In this document: positions 45,885 through 60,835 of the stretch, one piece after another
Numbering within the stretch: position 1 is the first letter of the stretch
Layout: each line of letters begins with the position of its first letter
Assembly (NCBI RefSeq): GCF_900215155.1
Contig: NZ_LT907980.1
Coordinates: 372,001 to 436,000, forward strand
Direction of reading: 5' to 3'
From: Marinobacter sp. LV10R510-11A
GTDB lineage: Bacteria > Pseudomonadota > Gammaproteobacteria > Pseudomonadales > Oleiphilaceae
Length of the DNA stretch: 64,000 bases
Translations under genes and position numbers: made by a program
Notes under the pieces: generated by a model
Told to the model about the DNA's origin: nothing
Databases searched by the model: none
The model's input: only the letters and a program-made list of their open reading frames with translations

Positions 45885-46832
45885 TCAGTCATGATTATCT
45901 TTCCGATTTCGCAAGTTCGCCACCCCAAACGGAATATGCACCATCGGAATATCCCCCGCATCGGATTCCAAGTGTGATCGTTGATCATCAAAGAACATGT
46001 GAGGCTTAAGCACGTTCAGAATTCGGTCTTTCTTCATCCCGCCTAGGAAGAAAACCTCATTGGCGTCCACGCCCCAGTGTTCCAGCGTTGTAATCACTCG
46101 TTCGTGGGACGGCGCATTGCGGGCCGTCACAATGGCGATTCGCAATACCCGCAGATAATCGGGATCGTCCGTTACAGCTTTGTCTTCAAGCTTTTGCAGG
46201 TGTGACAGCTTGCGAAACAAACCCGCAAGTGGGCCGGGGCTGTGGGGAACCTGAGAACGGGACGTCTCGTGCTCCTGAAAGTCCTCCAGCGAGCCGGCTT
46301 TGTATACCTGCTCAGAGGCATCATCTGCAATCACACCATCAAAATCGAACGCAATGCGCAGCTCTGCATCACCTTCATCATCCACTACCTGGCTCGGCAG
46401 CACAGTACCAGCCGGGTGGCCATAGTCTATTGCTTGCGACACATCAGCAGCATTGGCAGACAAAAAAAGCGAAGCATTGAACGCCGGAATGTAGGCATAG
46501 GGCGATTTGCCCTCCAGAAAGGCCGCGCGAGTAATGTCCAAGCCGTGGTGGTGAATAGAGTGAAACACCCGCTTACCGGTAATTACCGAGTTTCGGGATA
46601 GCAACACCACTTCTACCGGGCACTGCTCCGGAAACTTCTGATTCACGCTCAAAAAACGCTTTACGAACGGGAAGGCAACGCCCTTGCGCAAGGGCTCATT
46701 CAGGTGAGCTTCCTGATACTTCCGATAGGCCTGCTCACCCTGTTCCCGGAATACACGGTCAGACCCAGACAGATCAAACAGAGCGCTGGAGGCAACCGCA
46801 ATAACGAGCTTGTCTTCAATGGGGTAGGGCAT
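45885..46832 (-). CDS. Cytosolic 5'-nucleotidase (PF06189-like)
   Basis: A 315-residue HAD-like protein of the 5'-nucleotidase family related to animal NT5C1. It shows VIAVASSALFDLS at the nucleophile position, VVLLSRNS, RIAFDFDGVIADDASEQVY, VTARNAPSHERVITTLEHWG and FLGGMKKDRIL with FFDDQ near the end. It would dephosphorylate nucleoside 5'-monophosphates. A TTG at 46871 gives a longer product, but ATG 46832 (MPYPIEDKLVIAV) matches better. It is the last core-like gene before the accessory region. Confidence 0.85.
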   Translation of the reverse strand: MPYPIEDKLVIAVASSALFDLSGSDRVFREQGEQAYRKYQEAHLNEPLRKGVAFPFVKRFLSVNQKFPEQCPVEVVLLSRNSVITGKRVFHSIHHHGLDITRAAFLEGKSPYAYIPAFNASLFLSANAADVSQAIDYGHPAGTVLPSQVVDDEGDAELRIAFDFDGVIADDASEQVYKAGSLEDFQEHETSRSQVPHSPGPLAGLFRKLSHLQKLEDKAVTDDPDYLRVLRIAIVTARNAPSHERVITTLEHWGVDANEVFFLGGMKKDRILNVLKPHMFFDDQRSHLESDAGDIPMVHIPFGVANLRNRKDNHD

Positions 46833-46888
46833 CGGCAGAGCGTTCCTTTCTTTGCGGGTATCGAAATTCAAATCTGTAGAATCTGAAC

Positions 46889-46920
46889 TATAGTCGCACG
46901 ATGCGACACGTTCCGTCGCA
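46889..46920 (+). promoter_or_regulatory. Operator site A and candidate -10
   Basis: TGCGACA-CGTTC-CGTCGCA at 46902-46920 is one of four copies of the shared 19-bp dyad, 41 bp before the gene at 46961. A TATAGT at 46889-46894 could be the -10 element, placing the operator just downstream of it, a repressor position. An additional half-site pair, GTCGCA at 46893-46898 with TGCGAC at 46902-46907, overlaps. Confidence 0.7.
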
Positions 46921-46960
46921 TTCGTGTGGCATAGTTATCATATCAAACAGGAGGGAACTT

Positions 46961-47608
46961 ATGATTGATAACTTCAAAACCGATCTGGTTATCCGCGTGG
47001 CCGCTGTTCCTCAAGAAGAACTCCTTAAGGCCATGGGTTATCAGAAGCGGACCTCCGCAAACCTCGAGCGCCTGCAGCATGTATTGGACAGCCCCGAGTT
47101 TGGCTTAAATGACGCTGGATTCGACTTCAAGTTTAGCAGCGAAGGTTTTTTGAGAGCCATGTGCACATTGGTCGGCATGGATATGGCGTTGACGGACCAG
47201 CGCATAACCCGCGTGAAAAAGCGGCTCGCGGAAGAGAAGGCGGCCTTTCAGCCTTACCTCTGGGTAGATACGGGATTCAAACGTAAAAACCAGCCGCTAT
47301 TTGCGCTGGCGGTCTGTGAGCACCAGCGATACCTGCACTTTCCAAAAGGGTTTTGGCGCCTGACCCTCGACAGACAACTGGGTCGCGCCCAGTGTATGGT
47401 TCGTGAACATGTTTATGAAACTGGCGGAGATCTTGGGATTTGGGGTGGGATCGAGCAGTATTCGTTTTATTACAAAAAAGACGCCGCCTATCTGTTAGCT
47501 CGCAATGGTGAGGTGATGGGTAAGCGCGAGGGACCTGTTCCCAACCAAGCCATTGGAAGCCAAGAGTTGGATGTAATTTCATCTGCCGCTCGCGAAGCCC
47601 AACAGTAA
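46961..47608 (+). CDS. Unknown protein, paralog A of a duplicated family
   Basis: A 215-residue soluble protein that I do not recognise. It is clearly paralogous to the product of 48192-48830: both open MIDNF, share NLERLQ, an aromatic core PYLWVDT with FKR, and an end motif with GE and EGPV. CAGGAGGGA directly before ATG 46961 is a strong ribosome-binding site. An operator of the ARH/WYL type precedes it, and a metallophosphatase fragment follows at 47630. No signal peptide or membrane segment. Confidence 0.8.
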   Translation: MIDNFKTDLVIRVAAVPQEELLKAMGYQKRTSANLERLQHVLDSPEFGLNDAGFDFKFSSEGFLRAMCTLVGMDMALTDQRITRVKKRLAEEKAAFQPYLWVDTGFKRKNQPLFALAVCEHQRYLHFPKGFWRLTLDRQLGRAQCMVREHVYETGGDLGIWGGIEQYSFYYKKDAAYLLARNGEVMGKREGPVPNQAIGSQELDVISSAAREAQQ

Positions 47609-47629
47609 TCGAAGAAGGATGTGGTATCG

Positions 47630-47677
47630 ATGTACGACCTGATTGGTGATATTCACGGCCATGCGAAGGAGGCTTAA
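47630..47677 (+). pseudogene. N-terminal fragment of a PPP-type phosphatase
   Basis: ATG 47630 encodes MYDLIGDIHGHAKEA and then TAA. This is the beginning of a metallophosphoesterase nearly matching [15 protein letters not shown] of the intact gene at 48935. It starts 21 bp after paralog A, so the original arrangement was paralog then phosphatase, as in the second copy. The remainder has been lost between here and 47872. Confidence 0.8.
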
Positions 47678-47709
47678 ATCCCTGCCGGTTCATCTCGGCC
47701 TGCTGGAAC

Positions 47710-47820
47710 TGTCAACAACAGTGGAATTTGACCGTTTTGGGTCAGTATTACTCCGGTGTTAACACTTGGCTGCTTCGGCACGTTTCTTGGCCATTTCTTT
47801 TTCTACGCGGTTAATACTTT
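47710..47820. mobile_element. Possible insertion-sequence end remnant (IS21-like?)
   Basis: A TGTCAACA... stretch at 47710 and a reversed ...GTGTTAACA ending near 47764 form an imperfect inverted pair around GAATTTGACC and GGTCAGTATTAC. Beyond it, minus-strand translation gives RVEKEMAKKRAEAAKC then a stop, plausibly a transposase-helper tail. This resembles the terminal repeats of IS21-family elements, but no transposase gene is present. It sits exactly where the phosphatase copy is broken. Confidence 0.3.
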
Positions 47821-47872
47821 TTCTCCCTGTCTTTACATTCTATTGCCAGACTAGCACCAGCAGGCCGACCGA

Positions 47873-47891
47873 TGCGACCCCATGTGTCGCA
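47873..47891 (+). promoter_or_regulatory. Operator site B
   Basis: TGCGACC-CCATG-TGTCGCA is the second copy of the shared dyad, 37 bp before the ATG at 47929. Same spacing of 5 as the other three copies. No convincing -10 or -35 was identified around it. Confidence 0.72.
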
Positions 47892-47928
47892 TATCCGGTT
47901 TAAGATGAATTCAACAAAGGAGGGCAGA

Positions 47929-48195
47929 ATGAACATGCAGCTAACCACCGATCAAATCTCTAGAGCCTTGTTTGAAAACGATCCGATGAACACCTGTTGC
48001 AAGGAAAATGACTGTTTCGACGAATACGACCGTGTAGCCGTAGATGTAGCGCAGTGCCTTGAGGCCGGATCAACCCTGAAAGACGCTCTGGCCGGAGCCA
48101 TCAACGAATGGTTTTACGACGGCGAAGACATGCCAAAAAGTGAGTCGATCGTTGAGCCGACAATTGTGTGGCTGGAGCAGGCGGGCGCGCCATGA
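47929..48195 (+). CDS. Small acidic protein of unknown function
   Basis: An 88-residue acidic protein beginning MNMQLTTDQISRALFENDPMN, with three cysteines at CCKENDC, unrecognised. AAAGGAGGG five bases before ATG 47929 is a strong ribosome-binding site. It is coupled to paralog B by an ATGA overlap and lies behind operator B. It may be a partner or inhibitor of the paralog; paralog A has no such neighbour. Confidence 0.75.
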   Translation: MNMQLTTDQISRALFENDPMNTCCKENDCFDEYDRVAVDVAQCLEAGSTLKDALAGAINEWFYDGEDMPKSESIVEPTIVWLEQAGAP

Positions 48196-48830
48196 TCGAC
48201 AACTTCAGAGCAGACCTGATTGTGCAGGTTAACGAGTCAGAATGGTCTCGCGAAGCCATTCTCAAAAAAATGGGATACCACAAACCGTCAGCAACCAATC
48301 TCGAACGCCTACAAAAAGTGTTGAACAGCCCAACCTTGGGGCTGGATGTTGGCGGTTATGATCTGCGATACCAGAGCCATGAATTTGTTCATGAGCTGTG
48401 CCGGGCACTGGAGCTGCCTTTGGATGAATGTGACGCCAATATCGCTCGTATCAAACGCCAAACCGACGATGACCGCGCTTCATTCAAGCCTTATCTGTGG
48501 GTAGATACCGATTTTAAACGTGAAGACCAGCGTGTGTTTGTGTTGGCGGCTCTTGAAAGCAGGCGCTATCTAGGGTTCCCAAAATGGTTTTTAAGGCTCA
48601 CTCCTGAGCAGCAGTTGGTGCAAGCGCAAGAGTTGGTACAGGAACATATGCGAGAAACGGAAGGTGAATTGCTGATCTGGGGAACGATCAAGCGGTACTG
48701 GTTTTTTTATGCGCCCAATCGCAGTTATTGGCTGGCACCGGACGGCGAAATTATTGCCAAAAACGAGGGGCCGGTGAGAAACCGGGCGGGAAGTCCAGTA
48801 ATTGAGGCCATGAATAAAGCCCTTTCATAA
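48192..48830 (+). CDS. Unknown protein, paralog B of a duplicated family
   Basis: A 212-residue soluble protein, paralog of the 46961 product with shared MIDNF, MGYHK, NLERLQKVL, PYLWVDTDFKR and a C-terminal GEIIAKNEGPV. The central part has many aromatics (RRYLGFPKWFLRLTPEQQ). ATG 48192 overlaps the stop of the small acidic protein gene. A PPP phosphatase gene follows 104 bp downstream. Function unknown. Confidence 0.8.
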   Translation: MIDNFRADLIVQVNESEWSREAILKKMGYHKPSATNLERLQKVLNSPTLGLDVGGYDLRYQSHEFVHELCRALELPLDECDANIARIKRQTDDDRASFKPYLWVDTDFKREDQRVFVLAALESRRYLGFPKWFLRLTPEQQLVQAQELVQEHMRETEGELLIWGTIKRYWFFYAPNRSYWLAPDGEIIAKNEGPVRNRAGSPVIEAMNKALS

Positions 48831-48934
48831 ACGAAAAATAAGCCTGAGCTGTCCGCTTGTCGCTATTACCAATCTGGCCGAAGAGCTGGCAGAGTCAGCT
48901 AACTAACAAAATGACACTTCATGGAGGAATCACT

Positions 48935-49948
48935 ATGTATGACATCATCGGCGATATTCACGGCTACGCCACCGAGTTGAAAGCGCTACTCACCAAAATG
49001 GATTACCGAGAAATTGATGGCGTTTGGCAGCATCCTGAGCGGACGGTGATTTTTCTGGGTGATTTTGTGGACCGCGGTCCGGAGCAGGTTGAAACGGTTC
49101 AGATTGCCAAAGCGATGGTCGATAAGGGCAAAGCAATGGCCGTTATGGGTAACCACGAATTCAATGCGGTTTGCTGGGCTACTGAAGACCCCGATCATGA
49201 ATTTGATGCCGATTGTTGGGATACTGAAGATCCCGAACATGAACTTAATGCCGTTGCTGGGGACACTCCCAATCCAGAAAATCAGAAAAAATATTTACGC
49301 CTTCATACCGACAAGAATCATCGCCAGCATAAGGAGTTTCTGGAACAGGTAGTTGAGGGCAGTGAACTTCACGAGGATTTTGTTGAGTGGTTTAAAACTC
49401 TTCCAATATTTCTGGACCTACCAGAGCTCAGAGTTGTTCACGCCTGTTGGTCTCCCGAGCATCTGGAGCAAGCTCGTGGTTACATCGATAAAGAGAATCG
49501 ATTGTTGTCGGACTCTTGGGAAAAAGCCAGTCGAGATGGCAGTGAAGCCTACGATATGATCGAAACCTTGCTGAAAGGGCTGGAGATATTGCTGCCAAAA
49601 CCGCACTTTTTCCTTGATAAAGAAGGGAACCCTCGCCATGAAATCAGGACCAGGTGGTGGCAAACAGAGAACCTGACCTATCATGCTCTTGCCATGGTGC
49701 CCGGCTCAGAGATTGACAAGATCCCTCACGACCCTGTGGAGGCGCACATTCTTCCTGGTTACGACGAGAAAAAGCCGGTGTTTGTTGGCCATTACTGGAG
49801 GACAGGGGAGCCAGCGCCATTGACTGAGTACATTGCCTGCTTAGATTATAGTGTGGCGGGCGAGAACGGCGGAAAGCTATGCGCGTATCGTTTTAATAAC
49901 GATTCTAAGATTGATCCGAACAGATTTGTTTGGGTCAATCGTTATTAG
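48935..49948 (+). CDS. PPP-type metallophosphatase
   Basis: A 337-residue calcineurin-like phosphatase of the bacterial PPP group (PrpA/ApaH relatives). Metal and catalytic motifs are GDIHG (6-10), GDFVDRG (42-48), GNHE (72-75), VVHACW and GHYW. Substrates of the group include phosphoproteins, dinucleoside polyphosphates and RNA or tRNA ends, so the substrate is open. Directly after GNHE there is a threefold 14-residue repeat (75-115) that appears to be a local expansion. GGAGG precedes ATG 48935. It belongs to the paralog B module. Confidence 0.88.
49157..49279 (+). repeat. Three 42-bp tandem repeats inside the phosphatase gene
   Basis: Units at 49157-49198, 49199-49240 and 49241-49279 encode [28 protein letters not shown] and [13 protein letters not shown]. 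The units have diverged at the DNA level but keep frame. They insert about 28 residues right after the GNHE active-site motif. Confidence 0.85.
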
Positions 49949-49976
49949 CGCAGAGCAATTTCCGGGGAGCATCTCC

Positions 49977-49982
49977 TATAAT
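49977..49982 (+). promoter_or_regulatory. Candidate -10 for hsdM operon
   Basis: TATAAT 55 bp before the hsdM ATG, in the 89-bp gap after the phosphatase gene. The -35 region is poor. The shared dyad operator is absent here, so the restriction operon seems independently controlled. Confidence 0.4.
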
Positions 49983-50037
49983 TCCAAGTGGATTTCGAGC
50001 CGATAGCGACTTAAAACGTATTCAACAGGAAAGTAAA

Positions 50038-51609
50038 ATGACGAGTACCCAACAACGCGCCGCCCTGCAACGCCAAATCTGGCAAATTGCCAATAATGTA
50101 AGAGGCTCAGTGGACGGCTGGGATTTTAAGCAGTATGTACTCGGCACCCTGTTTTACCGCTTTATCAGTGAAAACTTCGCCAGTTACATTGAAGCCGGTG
50201 ACGACAGTATCCACTACGCAGAGTTGCCTGATAGCGTCATCACCAACGACATCAAAGACGACGCAATTAAGACTAAGGGCTATTTTATTTACCCTAGTGA
50301 GCTGTTTTCCAACATCGCCAAGGGTGCCAATAACAACGAGAGTCTAAACACCGACCTTGCTGCCATTTTTGCCGCCATTGAAAGTTCTGCCAATGGCTAC
50401 CCCTCTGAGCCGGACATCAAAGGCCTGTTTGCCGACTTTGACACCACCAGCAACCGCCTCGGTAATACGGTAAAAGACAAAAACTCCCGTTTGGCTGCTG
50501 TACTCAAGGGCGTAGCCGGGCTTGATTTTGGTGACTTTGAAGGCAGTCACATCGACTTGTTTGGCGATGCTTATGAATTTCTCATCTCCAACTACGCCGC
50601 CAATGCCGGTAAATCTGGCGGCGAGTTTTTCACCCCACAGCATGTGTCTAGGTTGATTGCCCAGCTCGCCATGCACAAGCAAACCAGCGTCAATAAAATT
50701 TATGACCCCGCTGCGGGTTCTGGCTCTTTACTGCTGCAAGCCAAAAAACACTTTGATGCCCACATTATTGAAGACGGTTTTTTTGGCCAAGAGATCAACC
50801 ACACCACCTTTAACCTTGCTCGTATGAACATGTTTTTGCACAACATCAACTACGATAAATTCAATATTATGTTAGGTGATACCTTACGAAATCCGCATTT
50901 TGGTGATAACAAACCCTTTGATGCTATCGTCTCTAACCCACCTTACTCATTAAAGTGGATAGGCTCAGACGACCCAACTCTGATCAACGACGATCGCTTT
51001 GCTCCAGCGGGTGTGCTTGCGCCCAAATCCAAGGCCGACTTTGCTTTTGTACTGCATGCACTCAGCTACTTATCCAGTAAAGGCCGTGCAGCCATCGTCT
51101 GTTTCCCCGGCATTTTTTACCGAGGCGGTGCAGAGAAGAAAATTCGTCAATACTTAGTTGATAATAACTATGTGGAAACGATAATTTCACTCGCACCCAA
51201 TTTTTTTTTTGGTACTACTATTTCGGTGACCATACTGGTGCTATCGAAACATAAAACCGACACCGCCACACAGTTTATTGATGCCAGCGGCCTGTTTAAA
51301 AAAGAAACAAACAACAATACCCTCACCGATGAAAACATCGAACAGATTATGCAGGTGTTCGATAGCAAAGCGAATACTGAATACTTCGCTAGATCAGTGC
51401 CTTTTGAAGAAGTCGCCGCCAACGACTACAACCTGTCGGTGAGCAGCTATGTGGAAGCCGAAGACACCCGCGAAGTCGTTGATATTACGGAACTGAACGC
51501 CGAGCTAAAAACTACCGTCGCCAAGATTGACCAGCTACATGAAGATATTGATGCCATTGTGGCCCAGATAGAAGGCGACGTGAGCGAAGTCGATGGGGTT
51601 GAAGTATGA
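50038..51609 (+). CDS. hsdM: Type I restriction-modification DNA methyltransferase HsdM
   Basis: N6-adenine methyltransferase subunit of a type I R-M system. The N-terminal HsdM domain ([32 protein letters not shown]) precedes the SAM site DPAAGSGS near 223 and the catalytic NPPY near 300. The C-terminal helix ends with a coiled coil ([26 protein letters not shown]). ATG 50038 follows AGGAAAG; the longer open frame to 49930 is non-coding. It is coupled to hsdS by ATGA. The locus is visibly more AT-rich than the core genes. Confidence 0.95.
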
Positions 51610-52751
51610 GCAGTATGAGCTGCTTGGAAAAGCTGTTGGGTGGCGTTGAAGTGGAATGGAAAGCATTGAATAGCGTGTTTGATGTTTACGCAGGCGGCGA
51701 TGCTCCAAAAGGTGCATTGTCGGAGATTAAAACCGAGGAATTTAACATCCCCATTTTATCTAATGGAATCGGCAATAAATCTCTATATGGATGGACTGAC
51801 AAATCAAAAATTGAAAAACCGAGTCTAACTATATCGGCAAGAGGAACAATTGGCTGGACAAGCTTTAGAACCAAACCTTTTTTCCCGATTGTCCGTTTGC
51901 TAGTGCTAACACCGAAGATTGAATTAGACCTGAAGTATGCCTACTACTTCATGAAAACCATTGAAAATAGTTATGAAGTTCCAGTGGCTGGTATACCGCA
52001 GCTTACCAAGCCGATGATAAAAAACATTCCAATCCCCATCCCATGCCCTGCCTACCCAGAAAAATCACTTGAAATCCAAGCCGAAATCGTCCGCATTTTG
52101 GACACATTCACCGAGCTGACCGCCGAACTCACCGCCCGCAAAAAACAATACAACTACTATCGCGACCAGTTGTTGAGTTTTGAAGAAAGGGAAGTGGAGT
52201 GGAAGACGTTGGGAGAAGTTGCCGTAATTGGTACGGGTAGTCATGACACAAAGGATGCCATCGAGGGTGGCGATTATATCTTCTATGCCCGCGGTCGGGC
52301 ACCGTTAAAGCTAGACGTGTTTGACTTTGATGAAACTGCAATCATCACTGCTGGAGATGGTGCTGGAGTAGGAAAAGTATATCACTATGCAGAGGGGAAA
52401 TATGCGTTACATCAGCGAGCATATCGTATCGTTCCAAAGGAAGTTATGGAACCGAGATTTATATATCACTATATAGCTGCATATTTTTACGCGTACATCC
52501 AAAAAGCATCGGTGAGTTCATCTGTTACCTCTCTCCGTAGGCCAATGTTTTTAAATTTCCAGGTACCCGTTCCCACGCTCTCGGAACAGAAGCATATCGT
52601 CTCCATTCTCGATAAATTCGACGCGCTGACCAACTCCATCAGCGAAGGCTTGCCGCGTGAGATTGCATTGCGCCAAAAGCAATACGAGTATTACCGCGAT
52701 CTACTGTTGAGCTTTCCTAAGCCTGAAGCTGAAACTGCCGTTAATACATAA
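51606..52751 (+). CDS. hsdS: Type I restriction specificity subunit HsdS
   Basis: DNA-sequence-recognition subunit of 381 residues with two target recognition domains (about 15-150 and 200-325). Each is followed by a conserved helical spacer: [33 protein letters not shown] and its counterpart near the C-terminus ending [15 protein letters not shown]. The two spacers are also similar in DNA, potential sites for domain exchange. The start overlaps hsdM. Confidence 0.93.
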
Positions 52752-52763
52752 GGAAGGAACCCT

Positions 52764-53804
52764 ATGTCCAAAAATATCAGCTTGCAAGACCAGACCACAG
52801 AGTTTCTGCTGTACACAGCACCTAGTGGCGAAATAAAGGTAGAGGTGTTACTGAGTAACGAGACCATCTGGCTAACGCAGGAGCGCATGGCCGAGTTGTT
52901 TGGCGTACAGCGCCCTGCGATTACCAAGCACTTAAAGAATATATTTGAGAGCGGTGAATTAGAGGAACAAGTGGTATGTTCCATTTTGGAACAAACCACA
53001 GAGCACGGCGCCATCGCGGGAAAAACCCAAACCAATAAGGTCAAATATTACAACCTCGACGCGGTAATTTCTGTTGGCTATCGGGTGAATTCTGCGCAAG
53101 CCACCCAGTTCCGGATATGGGCAACGCAGTTGATTAAAGAATACGTCATCAAGGGCTTTGCCATGGATGATGAGCGCCTTAAAAACGGCCAGTTTTTTGG
53201 TAAAGATTACTTTAAAGAGCTGCTGGAGCGGGTACGCTCAATCCGCGCCAGTGAGCGTCGTGTCTATCAACAGATTACCGACATTTTTGCCGAGTGCAGC
53301 ATTGATTACGACCGCAAATCAGAAACCACTCGATTGTTTTATGCCCATGTGCAAGACAAGTTTCATTTTGCCATCACCGGCCATACGGCAGCGGAAATTA
53401 TCTCGCTGAATGCTGATGCGAATATGCCGCTAATGGGTATGACCAGCTATAAGAATGCCCCGGCAGGTCGCGTATTAAAATCAGACACTGTTGTTGCGAA
53501 AAACTATTTGAGCGAAAGCGATATTGGAAAATTGGAACGCACAGTATCGTCGTTCTTTGATTACATCGAAGGCATTATTGAGCGCCGCAACACCTTTACC
53601 ATGGAAGCCTTTGCCGAGAGCGTTAATAAGTTTCTAGCCTTCAATGAATATCAAGTACTGGAAGGTTATGGTCGCATGTCGCGCAAAGCTGCTGAGCAAA
53701 AAGCTTTCCTTGAATATGAGCAATTTAACCAGCAACAAAAAATCGAATCGGATTTTGACCGAGAAGTGCAAAAACTACTGCAGAAAAAGGATGCACAGAA
53801 ATGA
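52764..53804 (+). CDS. rhuM: RhuM-family protein in the hsd locus
   Basis: A 346-residue protein of the RhuM family (Salmonella pathogenicity island gene name). A winged-helix-like N-terminus, [29 protein letters not shown], is followed by [20 protein letters not shown] and a Fic-like or toxin-related C-terminal part with [22 protein letters not shown]. Such genes are commonly inserted between hsdS and hsdR; their function is unproven. It overlaps the hsdR start by 4 bp. Confidence 0.88.
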
Positions 53805-56800
53805 TTACCTACACCCCCATCGCCGAATCGAACAACTTCATCGTTCTGGATACATACACCAAGGCATGGCAGGTGGCTGATAGCTACCAAAGCGAAGACG
53901 CGTTGGAGCGTGAACTTATTCAAGATCTGCAAAACCAGGGTTATGAATTTGTCCCTGGCTTGAACACGCCTGAGAAGATGCTGGCTAACGTGCGTGTGCA
54001 GTTGCAAACTTTGAATAATGTGCAGTTTGCAGAGGGTGAGTGGTTGCGCTTTGTGGAAACCTATTTGGATAGGCCCAGCGACGGCATTACCGATAAAGCC
54101 CGCAAAATTCATGACGACTATATTTATGATTTTGTGTTTGACGATGGCCGTATTCAAAACATCTACTTGCTTGATAAAAACAACATTGCCCGTAACAAGG
54201 TGCAAGTTATTAAACAGTTTGAACAAACCGGCAGTTACGCCAACCGTTACGATGTCACTATTTTGGTGAATGGCTTACCGCTAGTGCAAATTGAGCTGAA
54301 AAAACGCGGTGTGGCAATTCGCGAGGCGTTTAATCAAGTACACCGTTACAGCAAGGAGAGCTTCAACACAGATAACTCTTTGTATAAATATTTGCAGTTA
54401 TTTGTGATTTCCAACGGTACCGACACCCGCTATTTTGCTAATACCGTGAAGCGCAATATTAACAGTTTCGATTTCACCATGAACTGGGCGCGTGCAGATA
54501 ACTCATTAATTAAAGACTTAAAGGATTTTACCGCGACGTTTTTTTAAAAAAACGCTTTATTGAATGTGCTGTTGCATTACTCGGTGTTTGATGTCAACGA
54601 TACCTTACTGGTGATGCGCCCTTATCAAATTGCCGCCACCGAGCGTATCTTATGGAAAATTAGTAGTGCGTACCAAGCCAAGAATTGGAGCAACACAGAA
54701 AGCGGTGGTTTTATTTGGCATACCACCGGCTCTGGTAAAACCTTAACCAGTTTTAAAGCGGCGCGTCTGGCCACCGAGTTGGAGTTTATCGACAAGGTGT
54801 TTTTCGTGGTCGATCGAAAAGACCTCGATTACCAAACCATGAAAGAATACCAGCGCTTTTCACCCGATAGTGTCAACGGTTCTGACAGCACCGCGGGGCT
54901 AAAGCGTAATCTGGATAAAGACGACAATAAAATCATTGTCACCACCATCCAAAAGCTCAACAATCTGATAAAGGGAGAAGGCGATCGAGCCATCTACCAC
55001 AAGCAAGTGGTATTTATTTTTGATGAATGCCACCGCAGCCAGTTTGGTGAAGCGCAGAAAAATTTGCAGCGAAAGTTTAAGCGCTATTATCAGTTTGGCT
55101 TCACGGGTACGCCGATTTTTCCAGAAAATGCCCTGGGTGCTGAAACCACCGCCGACGTGTTTGGCCGTGAGATGCACTCTTATGTGATTACTGACGCTAT
55201 TCGTGATGAAAAGGTGTTGAAGTTTAAGGTCGATTACAATGATGTGCGCCCGCAGTTTAAAGTGTTTGAAGCTGAACAAGACGAGAAAAAGCTGACGGCG
55301 GCGGAAAACAAGCAAGCCTTATTGCACCCAGACCGTATTCGGGAAATTTCTCGGTATATTTTAAATAACTATCGCCAAAAAACCCATCGCAAACAAGCGG
55401 GCAGCAACGGCTTTAATGCCATGTTCGCCGTCAGCAGTGTTGATGCCGCGAAGCTGTATTATGAAACGCTGAGTCAGTTGCAGGCCGATCCTTTATATCA
55501 AGAAAAGAATAAGCCACTGAAAATTGCCACCATCTTCTCGTTTGCCGCCAATGAAGAACAAAATGCTGTGGGCGACATTCCGGACGAAAGTTTTGACGTG
55601 TCGGCCATGAACAGCAGCGCCAAAGAATTTTTAAGCGCCGCGATTTCCGACTACAATGTCCTTTTTAAAACCAACTTCGGTGTAGATAGCAACGGATTTC
55701 AAAACTATTACCGTGACTTGGCCAAACGCGTTAAATCTAAGGAAGTTGACCTGCTGATTGTGGTCGGCATGTTTTTAACCGGCTTTAATGCCCCCATGCT
55801 GAACACCCTTTTTGTGGATAAAAACCTGCGTTACCACGGTTTAATGCAGGCCTATTCGCGCACCAACCGTATTTATGATGCCACCAAGACCTTCGGCAAT
55901 ATCGTGACTTTTCGGGATTTGGAAAAAGCGACGATTGACTCCATTACCCTGTTCGGTGTTAAAAACACCAAAAATGTGGTGCTTGAAAAAAGTTACAGAG
56001 AATACATGGATGGCTTTACCGATGTTGTCACGGGTGAAGCGCGGCGTGGTTTTATGGATGTGGTCTCGGAATTGGAACAACGCTTTCCTGACCCGGATAA
56101 GATTGTTTTAGAAAAAGACAAGAAAGACTTTACTAAAGTATTTGGCGAGTACTTGCGCGCAGAGAACATCCTGCAAAACTACGACGAGTTTGCCAGCCTT
56201 AAGGCCTTGCAAAACGTTGATGTAAGCGACCAAGAGGCAGTTGAAGTCTTCAAGGCTGAGCACTACTTAGGTGATGAAGATTTAGCGACGTTACAAACTA
56301 TCAGGATGCCAGCTGAACGAAAGATTCAGGATTATCGTTCAACCTATAATGACATTCGGGATTGGTTGCGCCGCGAAAAATCAGCTGAAAACCAGGCTCA
56401 ATCTACCCTTGATTGGGACGATGTGGTATTTGAAGTGGACTTGCTTAAGTCGCAAGAAATTAACCTTGATTATATACTCGAGCTAATTTTCGAGCAAAAC
56501 AAAAAGAAAAAAACCAAGAGTGAATTAATCGAAGAAGTGCGCCGGTTGATTCGTGCGAGCCTGGATAATCGAGCGAAAGAAATCCTGATTGTCGACTTTA
56601 TCAGCCAGACCGACCTCGACGATATTGGCGATAAGGCCACTATTATTGACGAGTTCTTTAAATTTGCACAGGCAGAGCAGAGCCGTGAGGCAGAAGAGCT
56701 GATTCGTTCAGAGGGCTTGAATAAAACAGCGGCTAAACGCTATATCAGCGCCTCGCTGAAACGAGAATATGCCAGCGAGAACGGTACAGAGTTAAATGCA

Positions 56801-56914
56801 ACACTGCCTAAAATGAGCCCGCTGAATCCACAGTACAAAGCCAAGAAGCAGAGCGTTTTTCAAAAGATATCAAGTTTTGTTGAGAAATTTAGAGGTGTCG
56901 GCGGGCATTTTTAG
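53801..56914 (+). pseudogene. hsdR: Type I restriction endonuclease HsdR with in-frame stop
   Basis: Motor and nuclease subunit, 1,037 codons if read whole. Codon 249 is TAA (54545-54547) in the run T7A7; upstream and downstream parts are in the same frame ([10 protein letters not shown], stop, [15 protein letters not shown]), so one base substitution from GAA would explain it. The N-terminal part carries the PD-(D/E)XK nuclease segment [10 protein letters not shown]. The downstream part has Walker [20 protein letters not shown] and the C-terminal HsdM-binding domain. A re-start near 54560 (TTG) has no good ribosome-binding site. If real, restriction is off while methylation persists. Confidence 0.85.
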
Positions 56915-56972
56915 GCGTGGCTTCAGGCTAATCAATGAGGCGACGAGACTGGTATGCATAAGTTCAGTAGCT

Positions 56973-57341
56973 TTAGATTGTCTCTGACCTCGTAACCTGA
57001 TTCCGGGCTTCACGATAGGCGAAATCCCAGCTGTCATTGTTGGTTGGCATGCCGTTTGGTCCAAGTGGGCTTACCCCGAGTTCCTCACGACGCGCATTCA
57101 CTTTCGCCGTGTATTCAGCGTTCATTGGGTTAATGCCGCGCCGGCGGTCGGCGGCGTCGGAAATTGAATCAAGTTGGTTATCGGACTCTTCCGGAAACAA
57201 TTCAAAATGCAGGGTACGTGCAAGCTGTGAAATTTGCTGGTTACGGGCATCTTCTTCGTTTACCCGTTTGATGTCAGCTTCGCTCAAACCCTCGCGTGCT
57301 TTTTGGTACGCGCGGGCTTCTTCTTTTTTAAGGCGGTTCAT
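56973..57341 (-). CDS. Small conserved protein of unknown function
   Basis: A 122-residue hydrophilic protein, MNRLKKEEARAYQKAREGLSEADI..., with RRRGINPMNAEYTAKVNARREELGV, resembling short conserved hypothetical proteins seen in Pseudomonas and Marinobacter. No membrane segment or known fold. AAGGAAAACCT precedes ATG 57341. Its 5' region of about 140 bp holds operator C, the best copy of the shared dyad, so it is probably a regulon member. Confidence 0.72.
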   Translation of the reverse strand: MNRLKKEEARAYQKAREGLSEADIKRVNEEDARNQQISQLARTLHFELFPEESDNQLDSISDAADRRRGINPMNAEYTAKVNARREELGVSPLGPNGMPTNNDSWDFAYREARNQVTRSETI

Positions 57342-57477
57342 AGGTTTTCCTTGGCAGGTTGTTTGATGCTGATACGAAAGGTCATCGCGTTGTGTTGTTT
57401 TCTTTGTTAACTGACTTGCCTTATTTATTATTTATTATTTATTGCCAGCTGTTCCAAAGAACAACACGATAATAGCG

Positions 57478-57510
57478 GATACGTTGCGACAGATTATGTC
57501 GCAACGTATC
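57478..57510. promoter_or_regulatory. Operator site C, perfect 33-bp palindrome
   Basis: Core TGCGACA-GATTA-TGTCGCA at 57485-57503, extended by GATACGT and ACGTATC to perfect 14-bp arms (57478-57491 and 57497-57510) around a 5-base spacer. It lies between the 3' end of the WYL gene and the start of the 57341 gene, and overlaps the expected -35 of a minus-strand promoter with TATTAT at 57474-57469. Poly-TTAT sequence at 57421-57443 lies nearby; the rest of 57342-57568 shows nothing else. Confidence 0.85.
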
Positions 57511-57568
57511 GCAAGTCTAGATTCGAACGATAAATGCACTGACGGGGAGTTCTACAACTCGCGCTTGG

Positions 57569-58543
57569 TCAGCTTTGCTTCAGAAACCCCTCTGGCTCCA
57601 GAATTTCCAGCTCTGTTTCTATTCGCCGCGACAACCATCGGCGTAGCTGCGGGCTGTCTTCTATATAGGTGGTAACGATGTAATGGCTCGGACTGTCGCT
57701 GCTCCGCTCCAGGTTCTGCTCCCGGCCAATGGGGCGGTTGAACAGGGCTTCGGCCAAGGGCTGATTTACGCGTATGACTAAACGAAACGAGCCTTCCATA
57801 CCCAGCGCGAACTGTTGCGCAAGGTCCGGCTCCAGTGAGCTGTCGTTAAAGCTCAGGCTGGCGCTTGCTTGGGTAATGCGGTGCAGCGGGATCAGTTTAA
57901 TGCTGTCGTCGATGGTGTTGGCGCCGGGGTTTTCGGCGAGTAGATACAGAACTTCTTCCTGTAGCAGCAGGCGCAATGGCTGAAGTTTGCTGTAGGTTGT
58001 CTCGCCATTCAGTGTTGTGACGATCAGGTCTAGTGCATCGGTGTCCCTAAGCGCATCTTCGACGATGCTTTGTACTTCTGCACTAATGGGCGGAGACTCC
58101 GGGCGCATTGGGTCAGGCAGGTACTGAATCAGCTGCATCCACTGTTGAGTGTCGCGGTTTTGAGCGGCCGTAGCGGTTGCTTGTTCCCATAGGGAGTCGA
58201 GGCGATTGTAAACGCCGCGGGGTAATCGGTTGTAGGCCTGCTGTTTTAGCAGGGTAAGGGCTAAAGCCGCGTCGCTGTTGTTGATTAGCGTTTCCGGCAA
58301 CAGGCCTTTAAGGCTCGTTAAATGCCAGTAACTTGCTCGCCCGTTATCGCCCTGATTGTCTTCACAATAAATGGCTTGCGGGAACGTATCGAGAAGGCTG
58401 GCCAGATCCCGCTCTACGCTGCGTTTGCTGGTGGCATAGCCACGCTCACCGAGGATTTTGTGGATTTCCTTGGTGGACTTCGCCTGGCCCGGGCGAGGGA
58501 GAATTTTAAGTATTTCAATTTGCCGTTGAAGCTGAGTCGCCAT
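57569..58543 (-). CDS. WYL-domain transcriptional regulator
   Basis: A 324-residue HTH-WYL protein. The N-terminal winged helix (about 1-65, TKEIHKILGERGYATSKRSVERDLASLL) is followed by a linker and the WYL domain near 195-245, where the usual W-Y-L strand reads VLYLLAENPG, then a C-terminal WCX-like extension (residues 250-320). WYL proteins such as BrxR and CapW repress defence genes and bind nucleic-acid or nucleotide ligands. It is 22 bp downstream of the ARH gene, so co-transcribed, and I infer that it recognises the shared dyad including the site in its own promoter. Confidence 0.9.
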   Translation of the reverse strand: MATQLQRQIEILKILPRPGQAKSTKEIHKILGERGYATSKRSVERDLASLLDTFPQAIYCEDNQGDNGRASYWHLTSLKGLLPETLINNSDAALALTLLKQQAYNRLPRGVYNRLDSLWEQATATAAQNRDTQQWMQLIQYLPDPMRPESPPISAEVQSIVEDALRDTDALDLIVTTLNGETTYSKLQPLRLLLQEEVLYLLAENPGANTIDDSIKLIPLHRITQASASLSFNDSSLEPDLAQQFALGMEGSFRLVIRVNQPLAEALFNRPIGREQNLERSSDSPSHYIVTTYIEDSPQLRRWLSRRIETELEILEPEGFLKQS

Positions 58544-58565
58544 GGGTACGATGCATTCCCTGTCG

Positions 58566-59471
58566 TTATTCGCCTTGAGGCGTCATGCCGATTAACTGCT
58601 TGGCCAATGTTTCTATGCGACGTTTGCCCACCAACACGTTTAGCCAGTCTTTGGGAATTCCGTCGATGCCATAATGGCATCCAGCAAGCTGGCCTGTTAC
58701 GGCGGCGACCGTATCGCAATCGTCACCAAGGTTGGCGGCGGTGAGCAATGCGGATTCCAACGAACTGGTTGATGCGAAGCACCAAAGGGCAGCTTCCAGG
58801 GTGTCGACCACATAGCTTTTAGCTTTGATCAGCGTCTCCGGTTTATTGAGGTATTCGCCTCGGGCTAGTGCCAGGATTTTTTTGCTTTGCCAGGCTTGGT
58901 CAGCCGCTGCTGATAGCGCGTCGGATTTGTCCTCGCCAAGGAGTAAGAGGTGGAGGATAAAGGCGAGCAATTCACTGGCTTCCAGACACTCTTGGGCACC
59001 ATGCGTGGTGCGTGTGGCTTCCCGCGCCCAAAGGCGCACAAGTGCCATGTCCGGGTGGGCGGCCAGCACAACAGGAAGAAGGCGCATCAAACCGCCGTTC
59101 CCTGCCGCTAGGGGGTGAGTGGAACCCGAAAAGGCTTCACCGGTGTTTTCGAATTTGTTCAGTGCTGCACCAAGGGTGTTGCCCGGGGTGAGTGCCAGCT
59201 CACACGGCCAACCTTCTTTGCGATCGTAAAACCCCTCGTAACGGCGCATTTGATCGGCGGGATCAAAGCCGTTTGTCTTAGCCAGGCTTTCTCCCAGGCA
59301 CAACGCCAGTCCCGTATCGTCAGACCATTGGCCGACCGGAAGGTAGCGGCGGGTGCTGTGCATATCTGTGATTTCAGTGCTTCCACGGGGACTGAATTCA
59401 ACGCCGTTGGCCAGAGCATCTCCACAAGCCAGTGCTAAAAGTCCACCAAGCGCGCGATCGTTCAGGGTCAT
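58566..59471 (-). CDS. ADP-ribosylglycohydrolase family protein (ARH1)
   Basis: A 301-residue ARH/DraG fold protein that would release ADP-ribose from proteins, nucleic acids or metabolites. N-terminal GGLLALACGDALANGVEF, metal-binding WSDDT (Asp51, Asp52, Thr53), and C-terminal NLGDDCDTVAAVTGQ supply the dinuclear Mg site, so it looks active. ATG 59471 (MTLNDRALGG) is chosen; the frame is open further upstream through the promoter region but that is not plausible coding. First gene of the ARH1-WYL operon and divergent from ARH2. Confidence 0.9.
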   Translation of the reverse strand: MTLNDRALGGLLALACGDALANGVEFSPRGSTEITDMHSTRRYLPVGQWSDDTGLALCLGESLAKTNGFDPADQMRRYEGFYDRKEGWPCELALTPGNTLGAALNKFENTGEAFSGSTHPLAAGNGGLMRLLPVVLAAHPDMALVRLWAREATRTTHGAQECLEASELLAFILHLLLLGEDKSDALSAAADQAWQSKKILALARGEYLNKPETLIKAKSYVVDTLEAALWCFASTSSLESALLTAANLGDDCDTVAAVTGQLAGCHYGIDGIPKDWLNVLVGKRRIETLAKQLIGMTPQGE

Positions 59472-59513
59472 GGGTTTTCCGGTTGTTTGGGTGATGTCGC
59501 TGTGCAATTCATT

Positions 59514-59544
59514 ATTATAGCCCGTTGCGACAAAATGTGACGCA
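59514..59544. promoter_or_regulatory. Divergent promoter region with operator site D
   Basis: TGCGACA-AAATG-TGACGCA at 59526-59544 lies between the divergent starts at 59471 and 59585. On the minus strand TATAAT at 59519-59514 is a good -10 for ARH1-WYL, and the operator fills the space to its -35. That is a repressor arrangement and would put the WYL gene under autocontrol as well as controlling ARH2. Confidence 0.78.
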
Positions 59545-59584
59545 TAGAGTGTATAGGCTGCTTCCATCATTAAGGAGACGGCAA

Positions 59585-60499
59585 ATGAAAGACAATACCG
59601 AATTTGCGAAAAGTATACTGCTGGGTTTGGCTTGTGGCGACGCGCTGGGGACCACCGTCGAGTTTCGACGCCGGGATACCTTCCCGTTGCATACGGAAAT
59701 GACCGGAGGTGGCGCATTCAATGTAAAGCCTGGCGAGTGGACGGATGATACCTCTATGGCTTTGTGCCTGGCACAGAGCATAGTTCAGTGCCAAGGGTTT
59801 GACTCGAAAGACCAGCTTGAACGCTATCTTCGTTGGATGAATGACGGGTATTTGTCGTGCCACGGCTGCTGCATTGATATTGGCGGTACCACTCGCAACG
59901 CCTTAAAACGTTTTGAGCAAACTCGTGTGAGTTATGCCGGCACGGATAACCCGTTCGAAAGCGGCAACGGTGGAATTATGCGCCTGGCGCCAGCCATTTT
60001 TGCGAGCACGGACCGCGCTAAGGCTTTGGAACATGTGATTGACAGCAGCCGCACAACACATTCCAGTGCAGACTGCCTGGATGCGGCGGAGTTACTGGGT
60101 GCAATTCTCTGGGAGCTGCGAGAGGGCGCGGAGTTGAAAGCGGTGCTTGAAAATCTGCCTGACACTTGCGAGCGAGGTATGAAAATTGGCCGAATCAAGC
60201 GCGGGTTTTTTCGTAAGCTTGGGCGTGAGCAGGTCTCATCAAGTGGCTACGTGATCGACACCTTGGAGGCCGCACTCTGGTCCTGTTACCACTCGGAGGA
60301 CTTCGAAACCGCACTCATTACAGCGGTGAATCTGGGAGACGATGCCGACACGGTTGGGGCGGTTACGGGACAGGTCGCGGGTGCGGCATGGGGCGACGCC
60401 AGCATACCCTCGCGGTGGCTAAACAGTTTGGCGTGGCGGAGCCAAATTGAGGACATGGCGAATGGATTGGGGCGGCTGGCAAGTTGCACATCGGGCTAA
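59585..60499 (+). CDS. ADP-ribosylglycohydrolase family protein (ARH2)
   Basis: A 304-residue ARH fold protein: LLGLACGDALGTTVEF, WTDDTSMALC (Asp54, Asp55, Thr56), GNGGIMRLAPAI and NLGDDADTVGAVTGQ all intact. AAGGAG at 59572 precedes ATG 59585. It is only moderately similar to ARH1 across the divergent promoter, so this is probably an old duplication rather than a fresh copy, and the two may have different substrates. Confidence 0.9.
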   Translation: MKDNTEFAKSILLGLACGDALGTTVEFRRRDTFPLHTEMTGGGAFNVKPGEWTDDTSMALCLAQSIVQCQGFDSKDQLERYLRWMNDGYLSCHGCCIDIGGTTRNALKRFEQTRVSYAGTDNPFESGNGGIMRLAPAIFASTDRAKALEHVIDSSRTTHSSADCLDAAELLGAILWELREGAELKAVLENLPDTCERGMKIGRIKRGFFRKLGREQVSSSGYVIDTLEAALWSCYHSEDFETALITAVNLGDDADTVGAVTGQVAGAAWGDASIPSRWLNSLAWRSQIEDMANGLGRLASCTSG

Positions 60500-60640: not shown

Positions 60641-60835
60641 ATGGCAGTTGGAAAGAGCGGCAGGATCGTTATAGCGCTCACCGATCACGACAAACGCAAG
60701 AGTTACGCAAACCTAAAAGCTCGCGGACACACAATGCGTGAATGATTTCTTCAAAAAGCTAAACGGGACAACATGTTTACCGACGGTGTTCTTTCAGATA
60801 TCAATCGGCCCGATACATCAAAGGAGCAAAAATGA
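60641..60835 (+). pseudogene. Small DNA-binding-like protein with TGA at a Trp position
   Basis: ATG 60641 begins MAVGKSGRIVIALTDHDKRK, resembling the short proteins that often precede restriction-associated genes (GKSGRIVIEI... form, ending ...WFLQKA). The frame stops at TGA 60743-60745 after TMRE; downstream, FLQKAKRDN continues in the same frame, so TGG (Trp) to TGA would explain it. The unbroken frame ends at TGA 60833-60835, overlapping the DUF262 start (60832), the expected coupling. A 64-residue protein if repaired. Confidence 0.65.

What the first reader, a model, noticed from the sequence alone, without database searches (positions are those of the whole stretch)
46902..59544. Four copies of a 19-bp operator define a WYL/ADP-ribosylglycohydrolase regulon
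TGCGACA-N5-TGTCGCA occurs at 46902, 47873, 57485 and 59526, always with a 5-base spacer and always in a 5' region. It precedes both copies of the unknown-protein module, the 57341 small gene and the divergent ARH1-WYL / ARH2 promoters; site C extends to perfect 14-bp arms. The simplest reading is that the WYL protein binds this dyad and represses its own operon plus the scattered genes, so genes of unknown function are tied by regulation to ADP-ribose removal. Seen: the sites. Inferred: the binder and the mode.
Basis: partly seen in the sequence, partly recalled or inferred. Interest (0 to 1): 0.85.

Follow-up and report, generated by a model that had tools for sequence, protein, structure and literature searches.

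The report
DriD-type WYL switch for defence genes
The four repeated DNA sites look like landing pads for WYL proteins that probably switch on a scattered set of phage-defence, DNA-repair and unknown genes in Marinobacter bacteria, in the same promoter layout as a known DNA-damage activator, rather than only an ADP-ribose repressor circuit.

Summary
The dyads are real: 57485 is exact, the other three have one mismatch. They belong to a larger regulon. In the 4.44-Mb genome the promoter form GCGAC-N6-TGTCGC-N10-YANNNT matches only in three islands, each with a WYL gene and a copy of the unknown module. In 16 Marinobacter loci found by protein there are 37 sites against 1 for the reversed control. 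In 100 Marinobacter genomes hits track WYL genes (72 in 23 WYL+, 32 in 77 WYL-). A -10 hexamer lies exactly 9 bp after the operator (41 of 94 flanks, other offsets about 1), with no -35. Core and layout are those of DriD, a published ssDNA-sensing WYL activator, also the nearest solved structure. So the WYL/dyad link is supported; repression is not favoured; ARH genes sit in 1 of 16 module loci. A 2022 paper already predicts ARH-WYL-phosphatase systems, with WYL as an ADP-ribose-sensing repressor, so that reading stays a serious rival. Other targets: recC, SbcD-like nuclease, type I RM, DISARM-like helicases. Binding, activation and signal are inferred, not shown.

The parts
46902..46920 (.). 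operator A (1 mismatch), shared by DUF_A (+) and the 5'-nucleotidase (-)
   Evidence: YANNNT at +9 on both sides
46930..46935 (+). -10-like CATAGT, 9 bp after operator A, towards DUF_A
46887..46892 (-). -10-like TATAGT, 9 bp after operator A, towards 5'-nucleotidase
47873..47891 (.). operator B (1 mismatch) before SM-DUF_B-MPP
   Evidence: SM start 56 bp downstream
47901..47906 (+). -10-like TAAGAT, 9 bp after operator B
57478..57510 (.). operator C, exact core at 57485-57503, perfect 14-bp arms
57469..57474 (-). -10-like TATTAT, 10 bp after operator C, towards the small gene (9 bp in the G081 ortholog)
59526..59544 (.). operator D (1 mismatch) between ARH1-WYL (-) and ARH2 (+)
59554..59559 (+). 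-10-like TAGGCT, 9 bp after operator D, towards ARH2
59514..59519 (-). TATAAT, 6 bp after operator D, towards ARH1-WYL (not at the usual 9 bp)
   Evidence: read from the sequence
57569..58543 (-). WYL regulator, 324 aa; DriD-type by profile and fold
58566..59471 (-). ARH1, ADP-ribosylglycohydrolase (PF03747)
59585..60499 (+). ARH2, ADP-ribosylglycohydrolase (PF03747)
46961..47608 (+). DUF_A, 215 aa unknown protein, copy A of the module without SM or intact MPP
47929..48195 (+). SM, 88 aa small unknown protein
48192..48830 (+). DUF_B, 212 aa, 45% identical to DUF_A
48935..49948 (+). MPP, calcineurin-like metallophosphatase; best NCBIfam match is partial, to the phosphatase region of bacterial Pnkp, far below cut-off
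49930..56914 (+). type I restriction-modification genes (HsdM, a RhuM-family gene, HsdR) downstream of the module
56973..57341 (-). SMALL, 122 aa unknown, recurrent regulon member
45885..46832 (-). 5'-nucleotidase (PF06189), divergent from operator A

Best explanation
The dyads are operators of DriD-type WYL regulators. SHOWN: operator nGCGAC-N7-GTCGCn, a -10 hexamer at a fixed 9 bp, no -35, recurrence in front of the same gene families in many Marinobacter genomes, and co-occurrence with two related WYL lineages (the window ARH-WYL and the commoner WYL2). INFERRED: a WYL dimer binds both half-sites over the -35 position and recruits sigma70 RNA polymerase to promoters with no -35; by analogy with DriD the trigger would be ssDNA from DNA damage or phage replication, though an ADP-ribose product is open for the ARH-WYL lineage; the output is coordinated induction of repair nucleases, defence genes and the SM-DUF-MPP module. 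Symmetric operators can serve both directions (several sites have a -10 at +9 on both sides). ARH1/ARH2 are lineage-specific members, not the core.
For: Own genome: all 7 promoter-pattern hits (6 sites) fall in the three islands with module and WYL. 16 loci picked by DUF protein: 37 sites with 2 or fewer mismatches, control 1. 27 loci picked by WYL2 protein: 25 distinct core sites, control 1, TANNNT at +9 in 16 of 50 flanks, 5 or fewer at any other offset (some genomes overlap the first set). TANNNT at +9 in 41 of 94 flanks, 33 of 76 after collapsing related flanks. AAA promoters: site begins 61-62 bp before the ATG in 8 of 8 tabulated. 100 Marinobacter genomes: 104 pattern hits, control 5; two or more hits in 20 of 23 WYL+ and 6 of 77 WYL- genomes. 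Outside the genus, WYL genes of about 23-39% identity to our queries also lie beside exact sites. DriD: consensus ATACGAC-N7-GTCGTAT, site over the -35, constant distance to the -10; its didA and driD sites in our frame also have YANNNT at +9. PDB profile: first five hits are WYL chains, four of them named DriD, then PafBC; Foldseek ranks 1-7 are DriD. Targets.
Against: No binding or expression data. Identity to DriD is 16-17% and TM 0.41-0.51 over the full length; VIA-align Z for DriD (14.0) is only about 1.5 above PafBC, CapW and BrxR. An operator over the -35 would also suit a repressor. G083's ARH1-WYL promoter lacks a site. G061 has no hit (its WYL gene is cut by a contig end) and G086 none outside a resolvase-like gene; 18 of 77 WYL- genomes keep a hit not of the resolvase kind. 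Site C has its -10 at +10, site D towards ARH1 TATAAT at +6, and the two WYL2 start sides checked and the DruH and ZorA2 sides have no YANNNT at +9. In the order outside the genus, hits equal the control (28 against 29, my count). Published prediction for ARH-WYL systems is repression.
Confidence: 0.62

Rival explanations
1. First reader's model, also the published prediction for ARH-centred systems: the window WYL represses its own ARH1-WYL operon, ARH2 and the scattered genes and is released by ADP-ribose or a related product; BrxR/CapW-like mode.
For: PMC9503650 predicts WYL or Nudix negative regulators sensing ADP-ribose in ARH-type systems, with calcineurin-like phosphatase and 5'-nucleotidase partners; both partners stand beside operators here. 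BrxR operators are inverted repeats with a 5-bp spacer before defence genes (11-5-11 and 10-5-10; passages of PMC9122601 and PMC9122589). The operator covers the -35 position.
Against: No -35 under the operators (mean 1.0-1.3 of 6 matches) and rigid operator to -10 spacing are what an activator needs and a repressor does not. The DriD consensus shares the CGAC-N7-GTCG core. BrxR/CapW not found by the sequence profile at E<=1. Most module loci have no ARH.
Confidence: 0.24
2. The real binder in this genome is WYL2 (two copies, C1:1250637-1251626 and C1:206477-207466); the window ARH-WYL binds something else.
For: WYL2 is near the module in 11 of 16 loci, ARH-WYL in 1; WYL2 in 21 of 100 genomes, ARH-WYL in 5 of 145 relatives.
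Against: G081 lacks WYL2 at E<=1e-60; its only match in this WYL family is the ARH-WYL, and it has two exact sites and one 1-mismatch site in the expected places. Arg41 and Arg45 of the recognition helix are invariant in all 24 aligned members.
Confidence: 0.2
3. The dyads are intrinsic terminators or recombination sites rather than operators.
For: Site C lies just after the WYL stop codon.
Against: In 34 of 37 site-gene pairs that I tabulated the site begins 53-82 bp before the start codon, and a -10 stands at +9 in many.
Confidence: 0.03
4. Chance repeats plus homology of duplicated modules.
For: The module promoters are paralogous.
Against: Operator with a +9 hexamer before unrelated genes (AAA, PcfJ, SMALL, SM, 5'-nucleotidase, SbcD-like, DrmD-like) and after collapsing similar flanks (33 of 76); reversed control 1 against 37.
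Confidence: 0.02

Closest known systems
DriD of Caulobacter crescentus (PMC12340889, a preprint, passages read; PDB 8TP8, 8TPK, 9PFQ)
   Same: CGAC-N7-GTCG core; site over the -35 at constant distance from the -10; poor -35; nearest solved structures to the window WYL; in L079 and L125 the site lies between WYL2 and a divergent gene, with a -10 at +9 only on the other gene's side, as for driD.
   Different: 16-17% identity; outer arm bases TG/CA instead of ATA/TAT; targets here are defence genes, recC, SbcD-like nuclease and an unknown module on islands, with several WYL copies per genome; ssDNA sensing untested.
ARH-centred anti-ADP-ribosylation systems predicted in PMC9503650 (passages read)
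   Same: ARH domain with a WYL regulator, calcineurin-like phosphatase and a 5'-nucleotidase nearby; predicted phage-conflict role.
   Different: That paper infers a repressor sensing ADP-ribose and, in the passages seen, gives no operator; here most loci with the operator have no ARH, and promoters look activator-dependent.
BrxR/CapW WYL repressors (PMC9122601, PMC9122589, passages read)
   Same: WYL regulator of defence islands, inverted repeat with 5-bp spacer.
   Different: The sequence profile does not find them. Marinobacter has a separate WYL with what I read as a BrxR-type HTH.
PafBC and SiwR of mycobacteria (PMC6789036, PMC11804915, PMC10693628, passages read)
   Same: WYL activators acting at the -26 to -35 region in genotoxic stress; paired arginines four apart in the recognition helix.
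   Different: PafBC is a heterodimer with a non-palindromic motif; here the site is a symmetric dyad.

Membership tests
DriD-type homodimeric WYL activator | wHTH-3HB-WYL-WCX architecture with DriD as nearest solved relative | tested here: met
DriD-type homodimeric WYL activator | pseudo-palindromic target CGAC-N7-GTCG | tested here: met
   31 sites: C3, G4, C6, G14, C16 in all; A5 30, T15 29, G17 30; DriD consensus. The 31 were chosen by likeness to the 19-mer, so the count is biased
DriD-type homodimeric WYL activator | site at constant distance from the -10, poor -35 | tested here: met
   didA and driD in the same frame; bapE fits only in a frame chosen by hand (6 mismatches)
DriD-type homodimeric WYL activator | ssDNA binding in the WYL domain | not testable with these tools
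   needs protein
DriD-type homodimeric WYL activator | damage-dependent activation with sigma70 RNAP | not testable with these tools
   needs transcription assays
ARH-centred systems of PMC9503650 | ARH domain with WYL regulator and a phosphatase in one neighbourhood | tested here: met
   window ARH1, ARH2, WYL, MPP, 5'-nucleotidase
ARH-centred systems of PMC9503650 | WYL protein is a negative regulator sensing ADP-ribose | not testable with these tools
   a prediction in that paper too
BrxR/CapW repressors | sequence kinship to BrxR/CapW | tested here: inconclusive
   not hit by the profile at E<=1; Foldseek E about 1e-6 and weaker, after DriD and PafBC
BrxR/CapW repressors | inverted repeat with 5-bp spacer before the regulator's operon | tested here: inconclusive
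   spacer fits; site before ARH1-WYL in 3 of 4 loci
BrxR/CapW repressors | represses its own promoter | not testable with these tools
   no expression data
PafBC | non-palindromic motif | tested here: not met
   operators are symmetric dyads; PafBC motif described as non-palindromic

The most novel reading that the evidence does not exclude
A LexA-independent defence-and-repair regulon on islands: any gene that acquires a 33-bp portable promoter (operator, 9 bp, -10) joins it, so unrelated genes (type I RM, DISARM-like and Druantia genes, recC, SbcD-like nuclease, the SM-DUF-MPP module and, in one branch, ADP-ribose hydrolases) are switched on together when a WYL sensor meets ssDNA from damage or phage, and several WYL paralogs in one genome read the same operator.
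Probability: 0.4. Interest if true: 0.8.

Novelty: new variant of a known kind. Interest (0 to 1): 0.62.

Why it matters
Few WYL regulators have a known operator. A DNA pattern with a fixed -10 now predicts which genes a DriD-type WYL controls, puts an unknown three-gene module, ADP-ribose hydrolases and several phage-defence genes into one circuit, and makes the question of whether ssDNA (or ADP-ribose) switches defence on directly testable in a marine bacterium.

Tried and rejected

Literature: searches cover open-access PMC only, and I saw their listings (one search listed 10 of 947). In the listings and in the passages read I met no paper giving this operator or regulon in Marinobacter. 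ARH-WYL systems as such are in print (PMC9503650). The journal papers on the DriD structure were not seen.
Full report
What was claimed and what is there. Matches with up to two mismatches to TGCGACA-N5-TGTCGCA number five in the window against 0.31 expected. Only 57485 is exact; 46902, 47873 and 59526 have one mismatch; 19012, also with one, is not in a promoter. The window is C1:372001-436000 of a one-contig 4.44-Mb genome.

The regulon is larger than the window. In the own genome sites with at most one mismatch also occur at C1:216141, 1249001, 1250567 and 4397624, and a two-mismatch site at 218332. Two further islands carry the same module: C1:208000-226000, with a double AAA ATPase, PcfJ-like gene, SM-DUF-MPP and a PD-(D/E)XK nuclease, and C1:1240000-1259000, with SM-DUF-MPP, DUF_B, SMALL and ZorA/ZorC genes. 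Each island has a WYL gene within about 10 kb: the window ARH-WYL and two copies of a second lineage, WYL2. The 4397624 site lies inside the end of a small open frame and is probably chance.

Independent loci. A search by the DUF protein, not by the motif, gave 16 Marinobacter loci from 14 genomes. They hold 3 exact, 12 one-mismatch and 22 two-mismatch sites against 0, 0 and 1 for the reversed pattern. Sites lie before AAA, SM, SMALL, PcfJ and other genes. A WYL2 ortholog (78-83% identical to WYL2 or to the M. litoralis ortholog used as query, or that ortholog itself) is present in 11 of the 16, the ARH-WYL with ARH in 1, and none in the held DNA in 4. So the commoner regulator of the module in the genus is WYL2, and the ARH link is a side branch.

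Promoter geometry. Among 47 sites (94 flanks) TANNNT starts exactly 9 bp after the 19-mer in 41 flanks, while other offsets average about one. After collapsing similar flanks it is 33 of 76. In neighbourhoods chosen by WYL2 protein there are 25 distinct core sites against 1 control, and 16 of 50 flanks at +9 against 5 or fewer at any other offset; some of these genomes overlap the first set. The expected -35 hexamer falls inside the operator and matches TTGACA at only 1.0-1.3 of 6 positions on average in the 41 promoters. In the window, A in both directions, B, and D towards ARH2 obey the +9 rule; C has +10; D towards ARH1 has TATAAT at +6.

Across 100 Marinobacter genomes the promoter pattern GCGAC-N6-TGTCGC-N10-YANNNT has 104 hits against 5 for the reversed pattern. 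Genomes with WYL2 (E<=1e-60) or ARH-WYL (E<=1e-20; the ten genomes G510-G519 were not in that call) hold 72 hits in 23 genomes; those without hold 32 in 77. Two or more hits: 20 of 23 against 6 of 77, Fisher p=6e-13, without correction for phylogeny. Removing hits assigned to a resolvase-like coding sequence leaves 66 and 20. Own genome: 7 of 7 hits fall in the three islands.

Which WYL. G081 has no WYL2; its only match in this WYL family is a 97% ortholog of the window WYL, and it has exact sites before the module and the small gene and a one-mismatch site between ARH1 and ARH2. Conversely G013 has WYL2, no ARH-WYL, and one exact and two one-mismatch sites in the stretch read. The window WYL and the WYL2 members are 21-22% identical, yet share Arg41 and Arg45 in the recognition helix, invariant in all 24 aligned proteins. 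A separate WYL with what I read as a BrxR-type HTH was seen in 8 of 10 genomes looked at, among them G028, which has no pattern hit; it is unlikely to be the binder.

Link to DriD. Passages of PMC12340889 (a preprint) give the DriD consensus ATACGAC-N7-GTCGTAT, a site overlapping the -35, the same distance to the -10 in its promoters, poor -35 elements, ssDNA as effector, and a driD promoter site that serves the divergent operon. Placing its printed promoters in our 19-mer frame, driD has 2 mismatches and didA 4, both with YANNNT at +9; bapE fits (CAAGCC at +9) only in a frame that I picked by hand with 6 mismatches. Sequence profile and fold both put DriD first among solved structures, though the margin by VIA-align is small.

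Link to ADP-ribose. PMC9503650 (passages read) already predicts widespread ARH-centred systems against viral ADP-ribosylation, over 42% with a WYL or Nudix repressor thought to sense ADP-ribose, with phosphatase partners that include calcineurin-like enzymes and a 5'-nucleotidase. The window fits that description: ARH1, ARH2, WYL, a calcineurin-like MPP and a 5'-nucleotidase. What is new here is the operator, its promoter layout, and its use far beyond ARH loci. The layout speaks for activation, but the ligand of the ARH-WYL stays open.

Targets. Genes right after sites include RecC (PF04257: L116, L118 and, in a genome of another family, L181 tested; L123 and L124 by sequence likeness), an SbcD-like phosphoesterase with an SMC/AAA partner, HsdM, and DrmD-like SNF2 helicases. 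The recC and HsdM sites were found with the pattern that already contains the -10. A DruH3 (Druantia) gene lies 189 bp and a ZorA2 gene 390 bp after sites, both without YANNNT at +9. Hits before SIR2 and PDC genes outside the genus may be chance. The module itself remains unknown: MPP resembles the phosphatase region of bacterial Pnkp and ApaH-like enzymes, SM and DUF hit no family, and the DUF model has no clear fold match.

Judgement. The mode is more likely activation than repression, the wider set is defence and repair with ADP-ribose removal as one branch, and the kind is a new variant of DriD-type WYL control. Binding, activation and the signal are inferred.

Noticed in passing
window 47630-47677: A 15-codon remnant of the metallophosphatase start follows DUF_A; with SM also missing, copy A is a degenerate module whose promoter and leader resemble the SM promoter of the C1:208000-226000 island.
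   Followed up: partly
L012:9784-9942: Remnant of an ARH gene (47-56% identical to the C-termini of ARH1/ARH2) in another island, so ARH was once linked there too.
   Followed up: no
L011:1849-4228, L012:11778-13609, L045:6713-8745: UmuC/UmuD-like, YedK-like and LPD-like genes lie near WYL2 islands (names by my reading of sequences, not by a family search); fits a DNA-damage theme.
   Followed up: no
L111, L113, L122, L132: A recurrent operator-like string plus -10 lies inside a resolvase-like coding sequence in many Marinobacter genomes; probably fortuitous.
   Followed up: partly
L079:8957 and window 46902: A 5'-nucleotidase gene (PF06189 in the window; L079 by sequence likeness) lies beside an operator in two genomes; the -10 at +9 is there in the window, not in L079.
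   Followed up: partly
L053 (G289): Outside Marinobacter, a WYL gene and a DUF-MPP pair are divergent with an exact operator between them, but without YANNNT at +9.
   Followed up: partly
L046:2831, L046:9211, window 59526: Sites at ARH-WYL loci often carry TGACGC in place of TGTCGC in one half-site; perhaps a lineage-specific preference.
   Followed up: no
window 60832-62937: GmrSD-type restriction enzyme with DUF5655 next to ARH2.
   Followed up: no
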